Position numbers and translations under genes: made by a program. From Chloroflexi bacterium OLB13 (GTDB lineage Bacteria; Chloroflexota; Anaerolineae; Aggregatilineales; Phototrophicaceae): a DNA stretch of 64,000 nt. This document shows positions 25,577 through 38,694 of the stretch, one piece after another. The DNA lies in the NCBI GenBank assembly GCA_001567485.1, contig JZRA01000068.1, positions 62,001 through 126,000 on the forward strand, written 5' to 3'. Within the stretch, counting starts at the first letter, position 1; the number at the start of each line of letters is the position of its first letter. The notes beneath the pieces were generated by a model that made no database searches, was not told the DNA's origin, and saw only the letters and a program-made list of their open reading frames with translations.

Positions 25577-25873
25577 ATGGATAAGGTTCAGATGAAATAT
25601 GAGGAACTGGAGCAGATCGCTACTCGCCTTGCCGAGTGGTCGAGCCGCACCCAAGCTGCCGGGCAGAAATTCCGCCAACAGTTTCAGGTTCTGCAGGGCG
25701 GTGGCTGGATCGGCCGCGGCTTCGATAAGTTCGCCGACGAGTCTGAGAGCCTGCTCCTGCCCGCCGTTCAGAAGTTGGAAGATGCACTCGAGCAGGTCTC
25801 GAACATCATCCGCCAGTCCGTCGAACGCATGCAGCAGGCCGAAGAAGAAGCGCGCGGGCGCTTCAACTTCTAA
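25577..25873 (+). CDS. WXG100-type protein 1 (ESAT-6-like)
   Basis: 98 residues, all helix with a central turn holding W44-I45-G46 (GGGWIGRG), the WxG hallmark at its normal place and the normal length for the family. WXG100 proteins form four-helix dimers exported by type VII systems. There is no Y-x-x-x-D/E tail; the C-terminus is QAEEEARGRFNF. A good ribosome site (AAGGAGAGG) precedes the ATG. It is the first of four small genes, 31 bases before the next. Likely partner: protein 2, which has the RDxD tail but no Trp. Confidence 0.9.
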   Translation: MDKVQMKYEELEQIATRLAEWSSRTQAAGQKFRQQFQVLQGGGWIGRGFDKFADESESLLLPAVQKLEDALEQVSNIIRQSVERMQQAEEEARGRFNF

Positions 25874-25904
25874 CACCAACCGGAATTAGAGAGGAGAAAC
25901 CACG

Positions 25905-26201
25905 ATGGCCGACAAGATCCAGATGGATTACGACGCCGTACAGCAGATGGCAGAGATCGCCAAGCAGACGGCAGACGAACTGGAAGAAATGGTGGGATCG
26001 ATCAAGGCGATCAGCGATCAACTCGATGGCGGTGTCATGCTTGGCCGTGCGGGCCGCGTGCTGTCCGATGGTCTTGGTGAGCGCCTCGCCCCGGCGGTGT
26101 CGCGCTTGGCTCAGAAGTTCAGCGAAGTCTCGCTCGATCTGGTTGGCGCGCTGACCGACCTGCGCGACTCGGATCAGGCCGCTGGCGGCTTCTTCGGTTA
26201 A
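25905..26201 (+). CDS. WXG100-like protein 2 with degenerate WxG
   Basis: 98 residues, helix-turn-helix like protein 1. In the turn, GGVMLGRAG replaces GGGWIGRG, so the Trp is lost while the Gly stays. Near the C-terminus L86-RDS-D90 aligns with Y87-RDG-D91 of protein 4, the place of the YxxxD export motif in known substrates. GAGGAG precedes the ATG. The pairing with protein 1 is inferred from gene order and from the complementary motifs. Confidence 0.85.
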   Translation: MADKIQMDYDAVQQMAEIAKQTADELEEMVGSIKAISDQLDGGVMLGRAGRVLSDGLGERLAPAVSRLAQKFSEVSLDLVGALTDLRDSDQAAGGFFG

Positions 26202-26225
26202 CACGGGACAGAGGAGGACTACACC

Positions 26226-26555
26226 ATGTTCGGAATTCTGCTTAGCTTCGTTCGCAGTCAGGTCGACAACCTGCTGCAAAATGCCACCAAAGAGGTGGAT
26301 CGCCTGCAAGACGAGGTCCTCAGCGGACTGCGTAATGCGATGAACCCGCTCTCTGGCGGGGGGTGGACCGGCCAAGGCGCCGAGAAGTTCTACGATGAGA
26401 TGGAGAGTGTGGTGTTCCCGGAGATCATGTCGATCATGACCGGCGGCATCAGCTTCGTGGGCGCGTTCCAGAACGCGGCCAACATCATCGAGCAGGCCGA
26501 TGAAGCCATCAGTGGCCTAATCGGCGGCGTTGTCGACGCGTTCGACATCTTCTAA
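26226..26555 (+). CDS. WXG100-type protein 3
   Basis: 109 residues. The helical hairpin has W47-T48-G49 in SGGGWTGQG. It is slightly longer than the others and ends in a glycine-containing hydrophobic tail (SGLIGGVVDAFDIF). It starts 24 bases after protein 2 with GAGGAGG upstream. It repeats the type of protein 1, so the operon appears to carry two WxG/non-WxG pairs. Function as secreted partner or chaperone is by family only. Confidence 0.88.
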   Translation: MFGILLSFVRSQVDNLLQNATKEVDRLQDEVLSGLRNAMNPLSGGGWTGQGAEKFYDEMESVVFPEIMSIMTGGISFVGAFQNAANIIEQADEAISGLIGGVVDAFDIF

Positions 26556-26595
26556 ATCAACCGGACGAGAACAGGCAAAGGACTAGGAGGCCCCC

Positions 26596-26895
26596 ATGGC
26601 AAGCCCAGATGTGAGTATGAACATCCCCGATGTCGAGAGCATGGCCAAGACGTTCGACACCATGGCCGACGTCGCCAAGGCGATCTCGAAGGCGCTGAAG
26701 ATCATCATCACCACCCTGAAGGCGATGGCGTTCATCAGCATGGGCGCAACGACCGCGCTCGAGCAGTTCCTGTCCCGCATTCAGCCGCGCATCGAGAAAC
26801 TCGGTGAGAAGTTCGAGGAACTCAGCGGCGATCTGGACGGCGCGATCCGCAGCTACCGCGACGGTGACAACACCGGGTCGCAGCGCTTCGCCTAA
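26596..26895 (+). CDS. WXG100-like protein 4 with YxxxD tail
   Basis: 99 residues, helical hairpin. No Trp at the turn (MAFISMGATT). The second helix closely matches that of protein 2: KLGEKFEELSGDLDGAI against RLAQKFSEVSLDLVGAL. It ends with Y87-R-D-G-D91, an exact YxxxD motif of the kind that targets type VII substrates. AGGAGG lies before the ATG and a strong terminator follows the stop. It is the best candidate in the operon for carrying the export signal of a heterodimer. Confidence 0.85.
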   Translation: MASPDVSMNIPDVESMAKTFDTMADVAKAISKALKIIITTLKAMAFISMGATTALEQFLSRIQPRIEKLGEKFEELSGDLDGAIRSYRDGDNTGSQRFA

Positions 26896-26915
26896 GCGAC
26901 CACGCGCACGACACG

Positions 26916-26944
26916 AAGAGACCGGCCCTCGAAGCCGGTCTTTT
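26916..26944 (+). terminator. Terminator of the WXG100 operon
   Basis: AGACCGGC (26919-26926) pairs with GCCGGTCT (26934-26941) over a 7-base loop, followed directly by TTT. A-U pairs extend the base. It separates the WXG100 genes from the convergent pseudokinase gene. Confidence 0.85.
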
Positions 26945-26988
26945 CGTTTGCGTATCTCGCTGTGTAGGGGTGAAGTTCGTAGTTCGGG

Positions 26989-28074
26989 CTAACCGAGCAG
27001 CGCCGTCAGCAGCTGAAGCAGCACGATCAGAAGCGTGCCGATAATCGCCGCGGTAATCAACATCCGCCGCGTGATCCGCCGCTTCTTGCGTTCAGGCGGG
27101 GCGTCGCCGTACAGACGCCGGATCTCGTGCGCGAATGTCGGGACATCCTGCTGGCGCATTTCCGGGCGGGCGGCAAGCGCGTTGCCCACGAATACGGACG
27201 TCTCGCGGTAGTTCTTGCCTTCGGGTGAGATGGGCAGGTCACTGCGATGCAGCGCGGCCACCATACCCTCGATCACTTCGCGCCGAACCATGTCCAACCC
27301 GCGCGAACGAGACGGATAGGCAGGGCGTCCTGCCAGCATCTCGTAAAACAACGCGCCCAGACCGTACACATCCGTACTCCGGGTTGGCGGCTGACCCCGA
27401 ACAAGCTCAGGAGCTGTATAGGAGATGCCAGAGATCAGCTCGGCGGCGCTGGCGCTGGTGACCGGATACCCGAAGTCCATCAGGATCGGACGCGGGATGT
27501 CATCCTGATCGTTGCGGACATAGACGGCGGCCGGGCTGATGTTGAGGTGCAGCGTATCGTTCTCGTGCATGAAGGCTACGGCGTCCGCGACCTGCATCAT
27601 GATCCACGCCGCGTGTTGATACCACGGCTGCGGCTGGCTGTGCAGAAGGTCGCTGAGGAAACGGCCGTGCACGTACTCAAACACCATGTAGTACTTGGTC
27701 TCGTTTTGGAAGCCGACCTTGCCGTAAGGCCGTTCCGCTACTGACGCCGTGCGGTACGGCGCGACGAGAACCGGCAGGGCGTAATGCTGCCGCTTGCCGA
27801 CGAGCTTCAGCAGGGTCTTGGCTTCATGGCGGAGCTTATCCTGCGCGACCGGCGTGCTGTGCGCGACTTTCGCCAGCAGGCGATCTTCGCCGCGCTTGGC
27901 CTCGTAGATAGCGGCGGTACGGGTGACGGTCAACCGGCGCAGAATTTCCATGTCGCCGAGCGTGTCACCGGTGTCCAGCACAAGGGGCTTCTCCTCGGCT
28001 AAACAGTTCTGCTCTGTGCACCACAGGTTGCCATCTGGAGAAATGCGCTCACAGAATGTGCAGACATACTTCAT
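26989..28074 (-). CDS. Membrane pseudokinase with N-terminal zinc-binding motif, EssB-like in layout
   Basis: 361 residues. Four Cys (C5, C8, C19, C24) form a probable zinc site. A kinase fold spans about 40-325, and K69, the DFG at D200 and the APE-like APEL are kept. HRDIKPxN has become HLNISPAA, losing the catalytic Asp (N178), Lys and Asn, and no glycine loop is visible, so it should not transfer phosphate. A basic stretch and one membrane helix (338-360) end the protein. AAGGAGGT precedes the ATG at 28074. Firmicute type VII systems use EssB/YukC, a membrane pseudokinase, as a core part; this gene, divergent from the EccC-type gene, may fill that place. Confidence 0.8.
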   Translation of the reverse strand: MKYVCTFCERISPDGNLWCTEQNCLAEEKPLVLDTGDTLGDMEILRRLTVTRTAAIYEAKRGEDRLLAKVAHSTPVAQDKLRHEAKTLLKLVGKRQHYALPVLVAPYRTASVAERPYGKVGFQNETKYYMVFEYVHGRFLSDLLHSQPQPWYQHAAWIMMQVADAVAFMHENDTLHLNISPAAVYVRNDQDDIPRPILMDFGYPVTSASAAELISGISYTAPELVRGQPPTRSTDVYGLGALFYEMLAGRPAYPSRSRGLDMVRREVIEGMVAALHRSDLPISPEGKNYRETSVFVGNALAARPEMRQQDVPTFAHEIRRLYGDAPPERKKRRITRRMLITAAIIGTLLIVLLQLLTALLG

Positions 28075-28094
28075 GGGAACCTCCTTGTAACGCT

Positions 28095-28123
28095 TTGACA
28101 AGGATTCGGAATGGCGACACAAT
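28095..28123 (+). promoter_or_regulatory. Promoter of the EccC-type gene
   Basis: TTGACA (28095-28100), 17-base spacer, CACAAT (28118-28123), in the divergent region. The -35 is consensus and the -10 moderate. The start would fall near 28130, with a leader of about 70 bases. Confidence 0.5.
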
Positions 28124-28134
28124 AGACTCATCTA

Positions 28135-28200: not shown

Positions 28201-31200
28201 ATGGCGACGCAGTCCCAGCCTGTCTTGATCAACCGGCCACCGCGCATCCAGCCCGACCTACCGCAGGCCGAGTTTGAAGTTCCGCCGCCGCCGGAGCTGG
28301 AACTTGGAAACATCACGCTGATTCAGTCGTTTCTCCCGTTAATCACCATTATCGGGTATGTCATCGTTTCCGCAACTGGCAGCGGGCGCAACCTCGCGCT
28401 GATCATCCCGATGGGCTTGTCGGTCGTGGCGTCGTCTGGCCTCGCGTTTTTGGACGTACATCCGCGAGACGCGTGAACAACAGCGCCAGCGGGAGAGCTA
28501 CGAGGCGCGCTTGGCAACGCTTCGCCGTGAGATGGAGGGGTATCACGATCAGCAGCGCACGTTTTACTACTACAACTATCCCAACATGGAACGTGTGCTG
28601 GCGATTGCCGAGAATCAAGAGCGCGGAACGAAGGACAATCGTTCCGGTACGCGCCTTTGGGAGCGCCGCACCACCGACCCCGACTTCGGCGCTGTCCGTC
28701 TTGGCGTCGGCACGCAGCCCTCGACGGTCAAATACACATTCCAAGCCGAGGCCAACAACGAAGATCCGATGATGTACGCGGCGATGAAGCTCGCCGAGGA
28801 CTCGCTGAACGTGACGGACATCCCCGTTGCGATCCCGCTGCGCCCGTACAGCACCGACCCCAACGCGACCGATGGCATCGTCGGCCGTCATTCGATTGGC
28901 GTTACCGGCTCGAATCCGCAAGAGGTGTACGACTTCGTGCGGGCGCTGCTGGTCAACTTCACGGCATTCCATGCGCCGACCGATACACGCCTATATGTGT
29001 TTGGCGACCCGAGCGACGAGACGAATTGGAACTGGGCGCGTTACCTGCCGCACAGCAACTCCGGCAATAAGACCGAGCCGGGCGACCAGTTGTGCTTCAG
29101 CCCGCGCCAGTCCGCGGTCGAATCGTTCTGGGACATGATGATTAAGAGCGATCTCGAGCGTCGCTTGGTTCGCTTGGCTGATGACTCCAGCACCGACGTG
29201 ACCCTGCCGTTCCTGTTGGTCGTGGTTGACCAGCTTTCGATCGAGAGCAACCCGAACAGCATCGCGAAAGGCGCCGACACGCAGGAAGCGGCCTCGCTGA
29301 TCTTCCGGCGCGGCCAAGAACTCGGCGCGACGATCATCTTCCTCGTGCCGGACGCGAAGTACATCCCGAGTCAATGCGAGACGGTGATCGAGGTTGACTC
29401 CGAACCCAACTTGCGCGGCGAGGTCTCCGCCTACGGCCAGAAGCAGGGCACGCTGTTCCGCTACACCGAGGTCGGCGTGAACACTCGCCGTGTCATCGGC
29501 GTGGCCGACACGTTGAAGGCCGAGACCGCGATGAGCACCTTCTCGCTCAAGCTGAGCAACCTGTCGGTGCGGTCGACGTTCGGCACCGCCGGCTTGCCCA
29601 ACGACGTGCGTCTGCTCAACCTGCACGACCACATTATGCCCGAACGGCTCGACGCTTCGGCGGACGGGATATGGGAGAAGTGGCGCAAGAGCCGCGAGGC
29701 CACCGCGGCGGAATGGCTTCGCGTTCCGATTGGCTTCTTGCCGGGACCAAAGCGGCGCGATCTGTTGTTCAGCGCCAACGGCGACGGCGTTCACGGCATG
29801 ATCGCTGGCACGACCGGTTCCGGCAAGTCGGAGCTGTTGATTACGCTGATCCTCGGCATGGCGATGAAGTACGACCCCAGCGTGATCAACTTCGTGCTGG
29901 TCGACTACAAGGGCGGTACCGCGTTCAAGATGTTCGAGCGTTTGCCGCATGTGGTGAACCTCGTCACCAGCTTGCAGGGCAACGCGGGAGCCCGCACGTT
30001 CATCGCGCTGCAATCCGAAATGAAGCGTCGCGCGAAGATGCTGGCCGATCAGGGCGTTCCGCACATCGTGGACTACCGCGAAAAGGGGTATCACCGCACC
30101 GATCTGCCGATGGCGCCGGAGACGAAGGTCAAGCACAAACCGTTCCCGTTCTTGTTTGTCATCATCGACGAGTTCGCGGAAATGGTGAAGGAGATGCCGC
30201 AGTTCAAGGCGGATCTTGACTCCGTCACCCGCCTCGGCCGCGCTTACGGCGTCACGCTCATCCTCGCGACACAGCGCCCGACCGGCGCGGTCACGGATCA
30301 GATGCGCGCCAACATCAAGTTCAAAATCTGCCTGCGCGTAGAAACCGCCGAAGACAGCCGTGAGCTGCTGCGCGCCTCGGACGCGGCCTTCCTGCCTACC
30401 GGCGTGCCGGGCCGCGCGTACCTGATGGTCGGCAACGACAGCCCGCAGCTGATGCAGGTCGCATACGCCAGCTACAACTACATCCCCCCGACCGCCGACT
30501 CGATCGAGGAAGAGAAGCCACCGGTCATCAAGTGGTTCGACCGGCCCAAGAAGAAGGAAAAGAAATCAGCGAGCGCGGCCAGCTTGCGTACCGTGGCCGA
30601 CCGCGTTGTCGAGATTTGCGCCGCGCTGGCGATTGAGAAGCCAGATGTGGTCGAACAGGAGAAGCCGTGGCCTGATCCGCTTCCGGTGCAGCTTCCGCTG
30701 AATGCCGAGTACATCACGTCGGCGATGCAGCGCATGCCGAAGGTCTCCGACATCTTCGCCGATGAGGAGAAAGAGCCTGAGATCGAGGCGGCGGATGAAG
30801 TCGTGGACGATAACCCGATGTTCCCCCTCAGCCGCAACCTGAAGCCGTGGATCGACGAGATCATGCGGCAAGCCAGCGGGCGCTCCAACGGCGTGACCGA
30901 GACCACGACCATGATGGCCGATGGCTCGGAACGCTGGCCGCACGTGGATTGGTCGAGTGATGAGGCGCTCTCAGGACGCATCGGCATGATCGACGATCCG
31001 TACCATGCGCGCCAGCTTCCGCTCGACCTCGACCTGAAGGCGGGCAGCGTGCTGGTTTACGGGGCGTCAGGCAAGGGTAAGACGGGCTTCCTGCGCACAC
31101 TGATCACCAGCCTTGCCGTGCGGCACTCGCCCGATGCGCTGTGGATCTACGCGTTCGACTTCGGCGGCGGCGGCTTGACCCCGATCGAGAACCTGCCACA

Positions 31201-32992
31201 CGTCGGCGCGGTGATCGACAGCGAGGAGAACGAGCGGGTGACGCGCCTGCTTAACCGCTTGAAGCAGTGGGTGCGCGAGCGCGCCGAGTTGTTCGGCGGC
31301 GACAGCCTCAGCGTTTACAACCGCACGCATCCCAACGCGCAACAGCCGGCGGTGCTGGTCGTTCTCGACAACTACGCCGAATTCCGGCAGCGTTACGAGG
31401 ACGCCGGCGTCGAACTGGCGTCGCTTCTGCGCGAGGGCGCCAGCAAGGGTATATTCTTCGCGGTCACAGCCGATCAGCTCTCGACCGTGCCCGGCCGTAT
31501 TGCCGGCTTATTCAACCAGCGCCTGTCGCTCAAGCTCTCCGATCCGAGCGAGTACAGCGGGATCGTCGGGCGTGTGCCAGCGGATCTCGACGACATCCCC
31601 GGCCGGGGGTACATCCCGTTTGAGCGCGCCGTGCTTGAGTGCCACATCGCGAAGCCGCTCAGCATCGACCTGCGCACCGCCGAGGGTGAGCCAGCGGACG
31701 AAAGCGTTCAACTCGCAGCGTTGGCTGAGGCGATGAACACGGCGTGGACGGGGCAGCGCCCACAGCCGGTCGAGACCCTCGAGTCGATTGTCGCGCTGCG
31801 TGACATGACGCCGTTGGCATCCGAGCGCCGGATCGAGATCATGCTGGGCAAGGCGCTCCATGATCTACAGCCGATTGCGCTCAACCTGAAGGAGCAGGGG
31901 CCGCATTTGGTGATTGGCGGCTCACCGCTCAGCGGACGCACCACGACCCTACGCTCGATGGTTCTCAGCCTTGCCGACCGGTATGCTCCCGACCGGCTTG
32001 GCATCATCCTGATCGACGCCCAGAAGCGGATGTTCGAGTTTGCAGAAGGGAAGTCGCTCGCGAACCTGCCGCACGTGCGCGCTGCCATCAGCGAGCAGAA
32101 CCGTGAGATGATCGACCCGCTGATCGAATCCCTGCGCGCGTTGTATACGTCCGAAGGCTCCGCCAACCGGCCAGAGCTGTTCATCTTCATCGACAACTAC
32201 GACGACTTCAGCGATCTGTTCGACCGCAAGGCCAAGCCGTTGACCGACTTGGCGAACCTCGCGCGGCGTTACGGTTCGGACGGCCTGCACTTTGTGATCG
32301 GGATGGGCGCGTCACCCACCGAAGACCTGCTCAAAGTGATCACACGGTCAAAGGTAGGCTTAGCGCTCGACCCGGAGGCGGCAGGCAAGGCTCCGTTCAA
32401 CCTGACGGCGGCGGGTAAGCTGGCGCGCAACACGTATCCCGTTGGCCGCGGCTTCTTGATCGGGTCGGGCCGCTTCACGATCGTGCAGATCAGCACGCCG
32501 TATCCCATCGAGAACGCCGATGAGATTCAGGACTCCACCGAGCTGCAGGCGATGATCAACGTCCAGTTGGGTCAGTACGTCGATGATGTCATGGCGAAGT
32601 GGGATGGAGCGCCGCAGTGGGATTTCCAGATCAAGGCGCCGGAACCCGGTGAATCGAACGGCGCCGCGCCGGAGCGTAAGTCAAGCGGTGGCGGATCGTC
32701 CGCATCGGGTGCAGCCTCCGGCCCGGTATTACCGGCGGAGTATGCGGCGAAGCTGCGCGACGCGCTGAAAGAGATCGCGCCAATCGCCGGGATCGACATG
32801 GCCGTGATTAGCCAGCTCGAAGGGGCCGATCTCCTTCGCATGGCGTCGTCGTTCGAGGACATGGTCGACCTCGTGGCGCTGGCCGCCGAGGCCAAAGTCA
32901 AGCCGGAGGCGCTGCTGCCGGTGTTCATGGGGTACGGCATGACCGAAGAGGACGCGCGCAAGGCGCTGGGCCTGAGCACGGAGAAGGCATAG
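28201..32992 (+). CDS. EccC/EssC-type FtsK-SpoIIIE triple ATPase, frameshifted at a T-run
   Basis: The motor of a type VII-like secretion system. ATG at 28201 has GAGGGAG upstream. Two membrane helices lie at about 38-60 and 65-84. The frame breaks at TTTTT (28447-28451): removing one T joins it seamlessly to the long frame, giving 1596 residues. Module 1 has a full Walker A (K542) and DE (D656-E657). Module 2 keeps Walker A (K960), but the Glu is N1057. Module 3 has Arg in place of the Walker Lys (R1246) and DN (D1331). The family uses module 1 for work and the others to bind substrate. The C-terminal 90 residues are helical and follow a Gly/Ser linker. If the extra T is real, the gene makes only a 91-residue membrane stub. 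Confidence 0.9.
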
Positions 32993-33632: not shown

Positions 33633-35605
33633 TCACCCCGAAGGCGACGGCTCAGCGGTTGGCTCAGCCGTCGCTTCGCTTTCTGGCGTACCCGGCGTCG
33701 TGCTGCCGTCAGGTGTTGCGGGCAGCGGCGGCGGAATGATCGTCGGAACGTCGTTGGGATCGCCGAGGAAGCGAACCGCGTCGGACTCGATCAGCCCCGC
33801 CGAAATCCAGCCTTCGCCCCGGCGTGAACGGATCTTGTACCAGTTTTTGTCCGGCGAGACGCCCGTCACGACTACCAGCTCGCCTTTTGGCACCGGCGAA
33901 CGCAGCGGCGCGTCGGGATCGGCGGTGCTGTACACACGAATCCCAACGTCGATCAACACCTCGAACTGCGGCTGAACGTCCTCGATCAGCCACCAGAAGC
34001 GCCGGCCCGCGAGCACATCTGGCGCTAGATAGACCAGCACATAGTGACTGCCCGCGTCCAGCGGATTAGGCTTTGTAATGTTGTCGTAACGGCGCTGGAT
34101 CATGCCCTGATAAATCTCGATTGGGGGCGCGTTCGGGACATCGTAGCTGGTGACCGTCACCAAATCGAGCGCGCTCTCAGGCGTGCCTTGCAGAACCCAA
34201 TAGTCCACGCTGAAGGTTGACGTCGGCGTGGGCGGCAGGGTAGGGCTGGGCGGCGGGGTGTTGGTCGGTGTCGCTGACGGCTCAGGCGTGTCAGTTGCCG
34301 TGGGCAGCGCGGTCGGTGACGCGGTGGGCGTGGCGCTAGAAGTCGCCGTCGCGGTCGCTGTTGGCGTCGCGGTCGCGGTGGGTGATCCCGTTGCGGACGC
34401 GGTGCGCGTCGGTGACGCGGTGCGGGTCGGCGATGCGGTCGGAGTCTTGGTGTTCGTTGCTGTGGCCGTGGGCGTCGCGGTTGCGGTCGCGTGGCGGATG
34501 GACGCCGTGTCGGACGATGAGTCGGCTCGGAGGTGTCGGTCGCCGTCGCCGTATCGGTCGGAGTCGCGGTGCGGGTCGCCGTTCGAGTCGGGACGCTCGT
34601 ATCAGTCGCGGTTGGAGAGGGAGACGGCGTATCTGACGGAAGGACTTCGATGCCACCAGCGGCGTGTGTCTGAGTCTGCGCCGCGGCGATCTCCGTAGTC
34701 AGGGCAGCGGTGGTCGGCACGGGCAGCACGGGGGCCAATGTGTTTGCGCCGCCGCGCCCCGCGAGCACGGCCACCGCGCCAATCGCCACCAGCAGGACGG
34801 CCAGCAGCCCTAACAGCGGCCACAGCCAGCGGCGCTGCGGCTTGACCGTCCGCGTCGAGCCGATAATCACCGTGACGTTGTCGGGCGCGCCGCCCCGCAG
34901 GGTCAAGTCGATGAGCGTCTTGACGGCGCGCTCCGGTGGCTGCTTGGTGACCGTCTCCTGAATGACTTTTTCGCTGATGACATCCCACAGACCATCGCTG
35001 CACAGGATGAACACGTCGCCGGGTTCGACCGTCATCGGCTTATAGATCGTGTCCAACTCGAAGGGATGCCCGATGAAGGCTGTGATGTTCATATTGCGCG
35101 AGGCCGATGCTTGTTCCGGCGTGATCTCGCCGCGTTCCAGCATCGCCGCGTTGACGCTCTGGTCTTTGCTGACCATGGTCATCGTCTCGCCGCGCAGCAG
35201 ATACACGCGCGAGTCGCCGAGATTAAAAACCAGCGCGGTACCGTCTGACCGGATCACGACACCGGCGGCGGTCGTGCCGATATACACCATGCCGAGTGAG
35301 GTGGCGGCTTTGCGCACTTCGGCGTGGGCCGCTTCGAGCGCCTGCTGCACGCGGGCCTGCGTGTCTAGCTCGCTGTTGTTCTCGTCATAGTACGTCTTGA
35401 AGAAGAACTCGACGGCAGTACGGCTCGCGAGATCGCCTTTGCCGACGCCGCCCATGCCGTCACAGACCAGCAGGACAGCGCCGAAACGCGATTCTGGCGA
35501 TCCCGGCTCAGGCAGCAGCCAACGCATACTGTCCTCGTTGCGCTGCCGTTTGCGACCGACATCGGTTCCACCGGTGATCGTGAACGAGATCGCTTTGGGA
35601 TCCAA
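33633..35605 (-). CDS. PP2C Ser/Thr phosphatase with membrane helix and SH3-like tail, frameshifted in linker
   Basis: Residues 1-240 form a PP2C domain with all metal ligands: RNEDS (D25), VCDGMGG (D49), LCSDGLWD and [10 protein letters not shown] membrane helix lies near 258-280, then a Thr/Pro linker. Within 34490-34540 the frame slips: adding one base restores a T-A-T-P linker and leads into the frame ending at 33633, with an SH3-like domain ([19 protein letters not shown]). The repaired protein has about 657 residues; the Arg/Pro-rich end otherwise read is out of frame. It starts 5 bases after the VWA/FHA gene. It should reverse the action of the locus kinases. Confidence 0.85.
34230..34640. 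repeat. Low-complexity linker-coding DNA in the phosphatase gene
   Basis: Short GTCGCGGT/GGTGACGCG-type units encode the Thr/Pro/Ala linker between membrane helix and SH3-like domain. The frameshift of the gene lies inside it, where base-calling or slippage errors are likely. Confidence 0.75.
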
Positions 35606-35610
35606 GACGC

Positions 35611-38600
35611 TTAGCCTCTCCGCGTGAAGGCGATCACGGTGGTGCCGCCCAGTTTGATGACATCTCCTTCGCTCAACGGGACGCGTCCTGTGATATTCGC
35701 GCCATCATTGACGGTGGTTCCAAGCTGGCTGCCCGAGTCGATCACGTACCACGTATTGCGGTCGTAGATCAGTTCGCAGTGCGCGCGCGACAGGTTCTTA
35801 TCGCCGTCGATGTTGAGGTCGTTATTGCGCGGCCCCGATCGCCCGATATAGAACGGTGACTTGCTCAATGTGATGGTGCGCCCGACGAGCGACTCGTCGC
35901 GTGATTCACGGATGATGAGGTATCCGCTGACGACAGGCGCCGCGCCGGTGGCCTCCCCGATGTCGATAGCGGCATTCGTCGCGAACGAATCTGGCCCGCC
36001 CGGCCGAATCGTCGGTTCATCCAAGAAGTTTGGCTTTGTGTCTGCCCCGGCTTGCTTGACTGGCCCGGCCGGTGGAGTCGTCTTGGGTTGATCGCCCGAC
36101 GGCTTGGGCGCTTGCGGCATTTGCGGGATGATGAATGCGCCAGTCTGCGAGGGCAGCGACGCGGAGGTGTTCTGCCGCTTTGAACGCTCGCGGCGGCCGC
36201 TGAGCAACAGCCACACCAATACGCCGACGAGGATCAGCACGATCAGCCCGACGACAGCGCCGAGGATCGGATTCTCGCGGATGCGGTCGACAAGGCCCGG
36301 CGGCGTCGGCGTTGCGGTCGGTTCGGGTTTTGTCCATCGGAATGTGATACTCGCCGTCGCTAATTCGTTGTTTTTGTCGTCAAAGGCGGCCAGTGTCAGC
36401 GTATATTCGCCAGATGGCACCTCGGACATGCTGATCGTCCGGAACGTCTCCTCGCTCGGGATGAAGCTCTGCTCCGTGATGATGTTGCTGCCTGAGCGTT
36501 GTACGAGAACCAGCGTATAGCGGTCGACGGCGTCCGGGTTGCTGCTGACGTATTCGACACGCAGTGACTGCGTGGCGGCATCCTCGACCGGCGGGTTGAG
36601 CGTCAGGTTGACCACGACCGGCGTAACGGTTGGCGTCGGTGTAATGGTCGGCGTCAGCGTTTCAGTCGGGGTCTGGCTGGGCGTCGGCGTCGAGGTGCGC
36701 GGGTCGGTGAACTGCCGCACCTGCCGGTCGACCACGCGGCCGTCGAGGTTGATCGCCTTGATGCTGAACGTGTACTGCTGTTGACCGATCAACTTGCTGC
36801 CGGGCGTGTAGGTCACGACCTCATCAACCGGCACAGAGATGGTATCGACCAGCAGGTTGTTGGAGTCGAGGACGTCGATCTCGATCGTATCGATACGTTC
36901 AGGGTTCTCGTAGGCGATGCGCAGCACGAACTGCTGCGTGTTTGCGTCGAACGTAACGGCGTCGATGGCCGCGCGGATGATGACCTCGGTCGGCGTGGGC
37001 GTGATGGACGGGGTCACTGTGAACGTCGGCGTCGGACTCAGGATCGGGACGTACGTAAATTCCTGCGTACTCTCGTTCAGAACCGAGCCACCGCCATCGA
37101 GCGCCTGAACCCGCACGGTGTAGCGCGCGCCCGGCTTAAGCCCGGCATCGCGCCCGGCGAACAACACCTGATCGCTCAGTGACGGAGGTTCGATACTCCG
37201 GACAAGCGTGTTGTTCTCATCGAAGATGGAGATCCGGATACGGGCGATCTCCGCGATCTCGCGATACAGCAGATTGACCATGACCTCGTCGGTATCACGG
37301 TTATACTGAATGCTGTCGATGTTGGCGCTGCGGGGGCGCGGGGTTGGCGTTATCGTAGGCGACGGGGTGAACGTCGCGGTGCGCGTGAATGTTGCAGTTG
37401 GGCGCGGCACACGCACGGTGCGTTCGGCATCGGCGGCGGTGGTGCCGTCGCGGCGGATGGCGCGCACGGTGATCTCGACATTACCATCCGGCGCGTTGGC
37501 GGCGCTAAACGAGATCGGGCCGCTGATGGGTGCGTTCTGCACGAAGGAGGCGATTGTGCCGCCATCTCGATCAACAGCCTCGACGCGGTATTCTTCGATC
37601 TGGTCTTCGCCTGCCGCGCTCAGCACGAACGTGATCGTATCGGTTACGGGGTCGAACGTCGCGCTGTCGATGTTGACTTCCGGGGCGATCTCCGGCGTTG
37701 GCGTCGCCGGGATGCACTCGAAATTCGTGACAAAGTTGATGCTGTCTGCGAGCGAAGCGCCGCCTACACCGCCCGCCTGAACCAGCAGGGTTGCCGTGTG
37801 CTGTCCGCGCGTGATGCAGACATCACCGCGCGCGACGCGCTGATTGCGCAGCGATGCGACGATTCGCTCGAACATCGCGGGAAGGGCGTCCAGATTGCCG
37901 AACACCGCGAGGCCGTTAGATGAGTCGGTGATGCGCTGAAGCTCGCCTTGAGCGATGGGAATCCCACCGGTGAGGCCAATGGCATAGACGTTGACCGGGT
38001 TGGCGACGTCGGACGCGCGTGCGACGACCTCGTCCAGCGTGCGCGAACTGCACGGGTCGAGTTCACCGCCGGCGATCAATTCGTCACGACCGTCCGTAAA
38101 CAACATGACCGAGCGCCGGTTCGGCAGCGGGATTTCAGTCGCTTTTTGCATGGCAGCGAACGTGGCGTCGAAGAGGCAGGTACCGGCATTGGGGTCGTTA
38201 GGGTTGGCAGGTGCGTACTGCGCAATCGTGTTGATCACGCCGTTCTTGTCTTGCGAGAAGTCGGTCGCCGTCGAGATTTGACGGTTGAAGGTCATTACCG
38301 AGAAACGGGTGCCATCCGGCAGGTTCTGGACGGCGGTAATCGCGGCTTGGCGCATCGTATCTGCCGCCCCGCCCATCGACCCTGACGCGTCGAGCACGAT
38401 CACGACGAACAGCGGCGAGTTGGTTTCTTCAACGCGCGCTTCGGTTCGTGTGCCGTCCTCAAGCTGGATGATCGCCTGCCGCGCGCTGCCCGGATCGATC
38501 GCGTCACCGTTGGCATCGTTGACGGTAAAGAATAGGCCGAGCGATGTCGCTTCGTTTGGCCCGTCGGTGACCTCGGCGAACGACACGTTGATTGCGACGG

Positions 38601-38694
38601 GGTTGTTTTGCTGTGCTGCGCCGGGTGACGCCATGATGAAGAATCCCGCGGCAAGCGCATAGAACCACGTAGTGATTCGGGTTAGCCGACGCAC
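35611..38694 (-). CDS. VWA-FHA membrane protein of the type VII-like locus
   Basis: 1027 residues. A signal peptide (cleavage near GAAQQ) is followed by a von Willebrand A domain with a full MIDAS (D102-A-S104-G-S106), then three to four Ig-like beta domains split by Thr/Pro linkers (TPTFTVTPSITPTPT style). A membrane helix lies at about 808-831. The cytosolic tail ends in an FHA domain (about 925-1025) with G951-R952-S953 and S969-R-A-H972. DEPTIRPGG in the tail may be a phospho-site. So the protein can bind ligands outside and phosphothreonine inside. It is first in a two-gene unit with the PP2C phosphatase, and convergent with the EccC and Ubl-FHA genes. Confidence 0.88.
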   Translation of the reverse strand: MRRLTRITTWFYALAAGFFIMASPGAAQQNNPVAINVSFAEVTDGPNEATSLGLFFTVNDANGDAIDPGSARQAIIQLEDGTRTEARVEETNSPLFVVIVLDASGSMGGAADTMRQAAITAVQNLPDGTRFSVMTFNRQISTATDFSQDKNGVINTIAQYAPANPNDPNAGTCLFDATFAAMQKATEIPLPNRRSVMLFTDGRDELIAGGELDPCSSRTLDEVVARASDVANPVNVYAIGLTGGIPIAQGELQRITDSSNGLAVFGNLDALPAMFERIVASLRNQRVARGDVCITRGQHTATLLVQAGGVGGASLADSINFVTNFECIPATPTPEIAPEVNIDSATFDPVTDTITFVLSAAGEDQIEEYRVEAVDRDGGTIASFVQNAPISGPISFSAANAPDGNVEITVRAIRRDGTTAADAERTVRVPRPTATFTRTATFTPSPTITPTPRPRSANIDSIQYNRDTDEVMVNLLYREIAEIARIRISIFDENNTLVRSIEPPSLSDQVLFAGRDAGLKPGARYTVRVQALDGGGSVLNESTQEFTYVPILSPTPTFTVTPSITPTPTEVIIRAAIDAVTFDANTQQFVLRIAYENPERIDTIEIDVLDSNNLLVDTISVPVDEVVTYTPGSKLIGQQQYTFSIKAINLDGRVVDRQVRQFTDPRTSTPTPSQTPTETLTPTITPTPTVTPVVVNLTLNPPVEDAATQSLRVEYVSSNPDAVDRYTLVLVQRSGSNIITEQSFIPSEETFRTISMSEVPSGEYTLTLAAFDDKNNELATASITFRWTKPEPTATPTPPGLVDRIRENPILGAVVGLIVLILVGVLVWLLLSGRRERSKRQNTSASLPSQTGAFIIPQMPQAPKPSGDQPKTTPPAGPVKQAGADTKPNFLDEPTIRPGGPDSFATNAAIDIGEATGAAPVVSGYLIIRESRDESLVGRTITLSKSPFYIGRSGPRNNDLNIDGDKNLSRAHCELIYDRNTWYVIDSGSQLGTTVNDGANITGRVPLSEGDVIKLGGTTVIAFTRRG

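What the first reader, a model, noticed from the sequence alone, without database searches (positions are those of the whole stretch)
25577..26895. Four WXG100-type proteins arranged as two complementary pairs
Proteins 1 and 3 have WxG (WIG, WTG) and no YxxxD. Proteins 2 and 4 have lost the Trp but share a second helix and the tail LRDSD or YRDGD, aligned at the place of the YxxxD export signal. Order is A-B-A-B. In known pairs such as CFP-10/ESAT-6 one partner carries the signal. Here the duplication may give two different heterodimers, with only protein 4 keeping a true Tyr.
Basis: partly seen in the sequence, partly recalled or inferred. Interest (0 to 1): 0.72.

Follow-up and report, generated by a model that had tools for sequence, protein, structure and literature searches.

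The report
Two paired secretion-helper proteins, duplicated
A bacterium of the phylum Chloroflexota carries four small type VII secretion (WXG100-like) proteins that, across 61 related gene clusters, always occur in the same order and co-evolve as two separate pairs (1 with 2, 3 with 4), so this barely studied secretion system appears to use two different two-protein export units instead of one.

Summary
Window 25577-26895 holds four consecutive genes for helical-hairpin proteins of about 100 residues, each with its own ribosome-binding site. They lie beside a type VII secretion (T7SS) locus (pseudokinase, EssC-type ATPase, YukD-FHA protein). The same P1-P2-P3-P4 order recurs in 61 distinct loci, all apparently Chloroflexota. 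Trp of WxG is kept in P1 (60/61) and P3 (61/61). P2 has Leu/Met there (LxG) and P4 mostly Phe (FxG). Distance-matrix co-evolution, controlled for the other two proteins, singles out P1-P2 and P3-P4 (partial r 0.62 each; other pairs at most 0.24). A read-through P3-P4 ortholog model folds as one four-helix bundle (pLDDT 80, pTM 0.69), with P3's Trp loop bridged to P4's N-terminus. Best reading: two distinct, polarised heterodimers in a Chloroflexota T7SS not covered by T7SSa-j, probably from duplication of one A-B pair (the tree favours this, not significantly). Binding and export are inferred, not shown.

The parts
25577..25873 (+). P1: A-type WXG100 protein, 98 aa; WIG hinge; C-terminal MQQAE..A...F
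   Evidence: Pfam WXG100 44.4 bits, TIGR03930 56.4 bits; orthologs in 61 loci
25905..26201 (+). P2: B-type partner, 98 aa; MLG (LxG in relatives) in place of WxG; C-terminal LRDSD..A...F
   Evidence: Pfam WXG100 28.1 bits; co-evolves with P1, partial r 0.62
26226..26555 (+). P3: A-type protein, 109 aa; WTG hinge; C-terminal IEQAD..I...I; extended N-terminal helix
   Evidence: TIGR03930 28.7 bits, below cut-off; profile match to P1 E 2e-14; Trp 61/61
26596..26895 (+). P4: B-type partner, 99 aa; FIS/FxG hinge; C-terminal YRDGD......F (YxxxD)
   Evidence: profile match to P2 E 4e-14; aromatic or His at the Tyr place 59/61, Asp 58/61; co-evolves with P3
26913..26947 (.). 14-bp hairpin between the convergent P4 and pseudokinase genes; likely terminator
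   Evidence: RNA fold of 26905-26955: -27.2 kcal/mol, z -6.6; the consensus terminator scan did not list it
26989..28131 (-). Kinase-fold protein with a C-terminal hydrophobic helix; catalytic HRD Asp lost in 32/32 homologs; candidate EssB/YukC-like pseudokinase
   Evidence: Pfam Pkinase; motif check; co-evolves with EssC, partial r 0.89
28201..28476 (+). N-terminal membrane segment of EssC (RPPRIQP...LPLITIIGYVI), in a different frame from the rest of EssC in this window
   Evidence: continuous with EssC in six relatives
28511..32992 (+). EssC/EccC-type FtsK/SpoIIIE ATPase
   Evidence: Pfam FtsK_SpoIIIE, 3 stretches; TIGR03928 608 bits, TIGR03925 349 bits
32994..33620 (+). YukD/EsaB-like ubiquitin fold joined to an FHA domain
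   Evidence: FHA 42.8 bits; YukD 17.9 bits, below cut-off

Best explanation
The four genes encode two distinct A:B heterodimers of WXG100-type helical hairpins (P1:P2 and P3:P4) that serve the adjacent Chloroflexota type VII secretion system. In each antiparallel four-helix bundle the A partner gives the WxG hinge and the B partner gives the C-terminal export arm beside it (P4: YxxxD; P2: Met/LeuxxxD). Each dimer therefore has one complete 'Trp + export arm' end and one end without Trp, and would engage EssC in one preferred orientation. P1-like (and once P4-like) heads are also found at the N-termini of larger candidate effectors, so P1:P2 may be the general or effector-linked export unit and P3:P4 a second, specialised one. 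Shown: conservation, order, motifs, pairwise co-evolution, and a plausible P3:P4 bundle. Inferred: heterodimerisation, secretion, orientation and division of labour.
For: 61 distinct loci with invariant P1-P2-P3-P4 order; incomplete cases lie at contig or locus ends. In the class sample every genome with the EssC also has P4 (18 of 18). Partial mirror-tree r: P1-P2 0.62 and P3-P4 0.62, against 0.00-0.24 for the other four pairs, including the equally adjacent P2-P3 (0.16). This holds in subsets and with other distances, with EssC and the pseudokinase included (0.65 and 0.51), and in 926 of 1000 column bootstraps. Profile similarity: P1-P2, P1-P3 and P2-P4 closest. Motif counts. The AF2 P3-P4 ortholog chain gives pLDDT 80, pTM 0.69, four long helices, and a two-residue bridge between P3 Trp-Val 51-52 and P4 Tyr-Met 137-138. 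VIA-align lays it over both modules of EspB PE-PPE (4wj1, Z 11.8, 185 residues, 4.1 A; 7p13, Z 11.7, 158 residues, 2.8 A). Adjacent WxG/export-arm logic from PMC10765036 and PMC3935865.
Against: No experiment. Only P3-P4 was modelled with confidence; the four-module competition failed (pLDDT 46), and 1+2, 1+4, 2+3 and homodimers were not modelled. Unrelated four-helix bundles (ferritins) score equally in the fold comparison. Mirror-tree correlation is indirect. P1 and P3 also carry an acid motif, so the one-armed polarity may be less strict than stated.
Confidence: 0.75

Rival explanations
1. P1 works as an EsxA-like homodimer (as in Bacillota), and P2, P3 and P4 are secondary partners or chaperones for effectors (like Lap proteins or EsxB/C/D), not fixed partners of P1 and P3.
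For: P1 is closest to homodimeric EsxA structures (3zbh, 3gvm) and passes TIGR03930. P1-like heads occur on large candidate effectors.
Against: P1 and P2 co-evolve strongly and specifically. The four genes are never separated in 61 loci. WXG100 genes encoded in tandem form heterodimers as a rule (PMC3935865).
Confidence: 0.12
2. All four proteins form one hetero-tetramer or higher assembly (for example a pore or filament, as reported for EsxE/EsxF in PMC7810871) rather than two independent dimers.
For: Invariant four-gene set; P3 and P4 have hydrophobic stretches (P3 N-terminus, P4 hinge).
Against: Cross-pair co-evolution is low (0.00-0.24). The four-module model was uninformative.
Confidence: 0.08
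3. The pair structure reflects shared inheritance rather than binding: P1-P2 and P3-P4 moved or recombined as two-gene blocks.
For: Co-evolution measures cannot tell binding from joint transfer.
Against: P2 and P3 lie as close to each other as P1 and P2 (24 against 31 nt in the window), the order never varies, and the result holds within a narrower core set.
Confidence: 0.05

Closest known systems
CFP-10/ESAT-6 (EsxB/EsxA) pairs of mycobacterial T7SSa
   Same: tandem genes of about 100-aa helical hairpins; one partner with YxxxD; next to an EccC-type ATPase
   Different: both mycobacterial partners keep WxG (established knowledge); here the B partners have lost the Trp and there are two different pairs in one gene set
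PE/PPE and EspB (PE-PPE fold)
   Same: WxG on one hairpin and YxxxD on the other, as in P3/P4; the P3-P4 model overlays EspB across both modules
   Different: no PE or PPE family match at E up to 1 for P1-P4; short proteins without long C-terminal domains
EsxA/YukE homodimers of T7SSb
   Same: P1 and P3 are nearest to EsxA among solved structures; EssC, YukD-like and pseudokinase neighbours
   Different: single-gene homodimer there, two A-B pairs here
T7SSc-T7SSj variants (PMC11217815)
   Same: kinase/phosphatase/FHA/vWA-rich loci with TsxA, TsxB and TsxC; T7SSe and T7SSg carry two WXG100 proteins
   Different: that survey covers Bacillota and Actinomycetota, with four ATPase domains per TsxC; here four WXG100-type proteins, and in most relatives a ~2900-aa EssC with about seven P-loops
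LXG/Lap and EsaD/EsxB-C-D partner proteins
   Same: small hairpins, one with an FxxxD arm, assist a larger toxin (PMC10765036)
   Different: here the quartet belongs to the conserved core, not to one effector

Membership tests
WXG100 superfamily (PF06013) | score above Pfam gathering cut-off | tested here: inconclusive
   P1 44.4 and P2 28.1 bits pass 27.3; P3 21.4 and P4 18.8 do not
WXG100 superfamily (PF06013) | WxG at the hinge | tested here: inconclusive
   P1 60/61 and P3 61/61 yes; P2 (L/M) and P4 (F/M/I) no
WXG100 superfamily (PF06013) | helix-turn-helix hairpin of about 100 residues | tested here: met
   P3 and P4 orthologs modelled as hairpins with good confidence; lengths 98-109 aa; P1 and P2 by homology
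WXG100 superfamily (PF06013) | C-terminal HxxxD/ExxhxxxH (PMC3935865) | tested here: met
   P1 56/61, P2 47/61, P3 61/61, P4 49/61 for positions 0, +4 and +11
CFP-10/ESAT-6-type heterodimer | tandem genes forming a 1:1 heterodimer | not testable with these tools
   tandem genes and pair-specific co-evolution only; binding needs the bench
CFP-10/ESAT-6-type heterodimer | WxG in both partners | tested here: not met
   P2 and P4 lack Trp at the hinge in all 61
PE/PPE | PE and PPE family domains | tested here: not met
   no PE or PPE match for P1-P4 at E up to 1
Type VII secretion system | EssC/EccC-type membrane ATPase | tested here: met
   TIGR03925 349.3 bits over its cut-off 346.55; TIGR03928 608 bits, below its own cut-off; membrane segment upstream
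Type VII secretion system | YukD/EsaB ubiquitin-like protein | tested here: inconclusive
   YukD 17.9 bits, below cut-off 27
T7SSb | EsaA, EssA and EssB components | not tested
   a pseudokinase with EssB-like features is present; EsaA and EssA were not searched

The most novel reading that the evidence does not exclude
Chloroflexota have their own T7SS class whose core needs two orthogonal export heterodimers, each with a single asymmetric Trp/export-arm end; the two pairs are read by different parts of an EssC that is enlarged (about seven P-loops) in most relatives.
Probability: 0.3. Interest if true: 0.75.

Novelty: new variant of a known kind. Interest (0 to 1): 0.58.

Why it matters
T7SS biology rests on two phyla, where the core export substrate is one homodimer or one heterodimer. 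A phylum-wide system with two conserved pairs, in which Trp and the aromatic export arm are split between partners, would let one test directly which half of the bipartite signal docks on EssC and whether the pairs have separate jobs. Cultured hosts exist (Herpetosiphon; loci L034, L035, L046, L049).

Tried and rejected
Four-module AF2 competition on L029, where all four genes happen to share a frame (stops read as Gly): only 8 rows, pLDDT 46, pTM 0.29, not interpretable. A first 145-row alignment for it put paralogs on top of each other and was dropped. Gene tree: the (P1,P3)|(P2,P4) split has the best likelihood, also without hinge columns, but the AU test does not reject the alternatives (p 0.11-0.36); earlier quick trees gave about 97% SH-aLRT but their search was poor. 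Foldseek gave no match below E 0.001; in VIA-align ferritin-like bundles rank as high as EspB. Coincidence was rejected by conservation. The consensus promoter/terminator scan found nothing, although a strong hairpin follows P4. P4 profile against PDB sequences found only designed coiled coils and weak EsxA matches.

Full report
What is there. The four ORFs are at 25577-25873, 25905-26201, 26226-26555 and 26596-26895 on +, with gaps of 31, 24 and 40 nt and an AGGAG-like site before each ATG. A 14-bp hairpin follows P4 (z -6.6), where it meets the convergent kinase-like gene. Next come EssC (28511-32992) and a YukD-FHA protein. A PP2C phosphatase (34157-35605, -), a vWA-FHA protein (35611-38694, -) and two large kinases lie around them. 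The window lies in a 4.2-Mb genome. Its 'same class' relatives include contigs that give the same quartets as named Anaerolineae records (for example L020 and L041), so the host is most likely an anaerolinean Chloroflexota (inference).

Is it more than chance? Searching with P4 orthologs over 84,980 species' contigs gave 38 loci; the record titles name Chloroflexota groups (Anaerolineae, Ardenticatenia, Caldilineales, Chloroflexales, Herpetosiphon), one being titled only 'bacterium'. With the genome searches there are 61 distinct quartets in one order and strand. Newly fetched loci without a full quartet are short or cut by contig ends. All 18 genomes of the first class sample with an EssC of this kind also have P4.

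Motifs. Hinge: P1 W 60/61 (one F), P3 W 61/61, P2 L 58 or M 3, P4 F 59 (one I, one M). Acid at +4: P1 56/61, P2 52/61, P3 61/61, P4 58/61. Position 0 in P4: Y 37, F 10, H 9, W 3, L 2. But the export motif in its general form (Poulsen et al. 2014, PMC3935865) is on all four; only the aromatic residue is P4's own.

Paralogy. Profile-profile E-values: P1-P2 3e-17, P1-P3 2e-14, P2-P4 4e-14, P2-P3 3e-10, P1-P4 9e-7, P3-P4 1e-3. This fits an old A-B pair (P1-P2) copied to give a faster-diverging P3-P4. The tree agrees but is not decisive.

Who pairs with whom? Pairwise distances over 47 non-redundant loci were correlated with the other two proteins held constant: P1-P2 0.62 (taxon bootstrap 0.55-0.68), P3-P4 0.62 (0.54-0.70), P2-P4 0.24, P1-P3 0.19, P2-P3 0.16, P1-P4 0.00. 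The ranking holds with other distances, ranks and subsets and in 926 of 1000 column bootstraps. With EssC and the pseudokinase added (21 loci) three modules appear: P1-P2 0.65, P3-P4 0.51, EssC-pseudokinase 0.89. P2-P3 are just as adjacent, so adjacency alone does not explain the pairs.

Structure. A chain of P3 and P4 from L055, where both genes share a frame (stop read as Gly, the stretch around residues 99-131 of low confidence), was modelled from 92 rows: pLDDT 80.1, pTM 0.69, main helices 2-50, 54-98, 140-178, 181-218. The only strand pair joins residues 51-52 (Trp-Val of P3's WxG) with 137-138 (Tyr-Met of P4's N-terminus). That is what the head-to-tail packing of WXG100 dimers would give, and it puts P3's Trp loop by P4's termini, where the YxxxD arm lies. 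EspB PE-PPE chains give the longest alignments in the list (184-185 residues), but simple four-helix proteins reach the same Z, so the fold match is supportive only.

How it probably works. In known systems the WxG of one protomer and the export arm of the other form one surface (PMC10765036). With Trp only on A and the aromatic-acid arm on B (P4), each heterodimer has one complete end. I propose that P1:P2 and P3:P4 are two export units with one preferred orientation each. P1-type heads on larger proteins (332-494 aa) suggest that effectors borrow the A1 fold and may pair with P2; one P4-headed protein with a lipase-like HSQGG motif suggests the same for P3. The division of labour is speculation.

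Relation to known systems. It is a T7SS by EssC and neighbours. It does not match T7SSa or T7SSb in WXG100 complement, nor the T7SSc-j set, which was drawn from two other phyla (PMC11217815). The literature mentions only a smaller number of Chloroflexota WXG100 sequences (PMC10765036, PMC3935865) and WXG100-calpain proteins in Herpetosiphon (PMC4631099). I found no paper in the held library on a Chloroflexota T7SS; subscription papers are not held, so this is not proof of absence. Verdict: new variant of a known kind.

Noticed in passing
window 28201-28511: The EssC membrane segment (28201-28476) and the rest of EssC are in different frames, while six relatives have one continuous frame; either a sequence error or a real lesion.
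   Followed up: partly
L013, L015, L020, L022, L034, L037, L041, L042, L044, L045, L048, L055, L056, L061, L062, L065 and others: Most relatives have an EssC of about 2800-3000 aa with around seven P-loops (seven FtsK_SpoIIIE stretches in the one scanned), against about 1500 aa in the window, L029-L032, L038, L064 and L066.
   Followed up: partly
window 26989-28131 and 32 homologs: The kinase-like gene between P4 and EssC has lost the HRD catalytic Asp in 32/32 but keeps the Lys and DxG; it co-evolves with EssC (0.89), like an EssB-type pseudokinase.
   Followed up: partly
L003 (own genome, contig C36): A second, simpler T7SS-like locus: an FMS (no Trp) and a WMG WXG100 gene beside a kinase and an EssC-like N-terminus.
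   Followed up: partly
L002 (own genome, contig C65); L012, L013, L018, L020, L022, L025, L028, L057: Larger proteins with a P1-like WXG100 head and unassigned C-terminal parts, candidate T7SS effectors.
   Followed up: partly
L127:2514-3713 (-): A 399-aa protein with a P4-type head and a C-terminal part holding a lipase-like HSQGG motif; no Pfam match at E 0.01.
   Followed up: partly
L128:1277-2077 (-): An extra two-gene unit in a same-genus genome: a P4-like gene followed by a P1-like gene.
   Followed up: no
window 34157-38694 (-): PP2C phosphatase and a vWA-FHA protein beside the T7SS, as in kinase/phosphatase-rich T7SSc-j loci.
   Followed up: no
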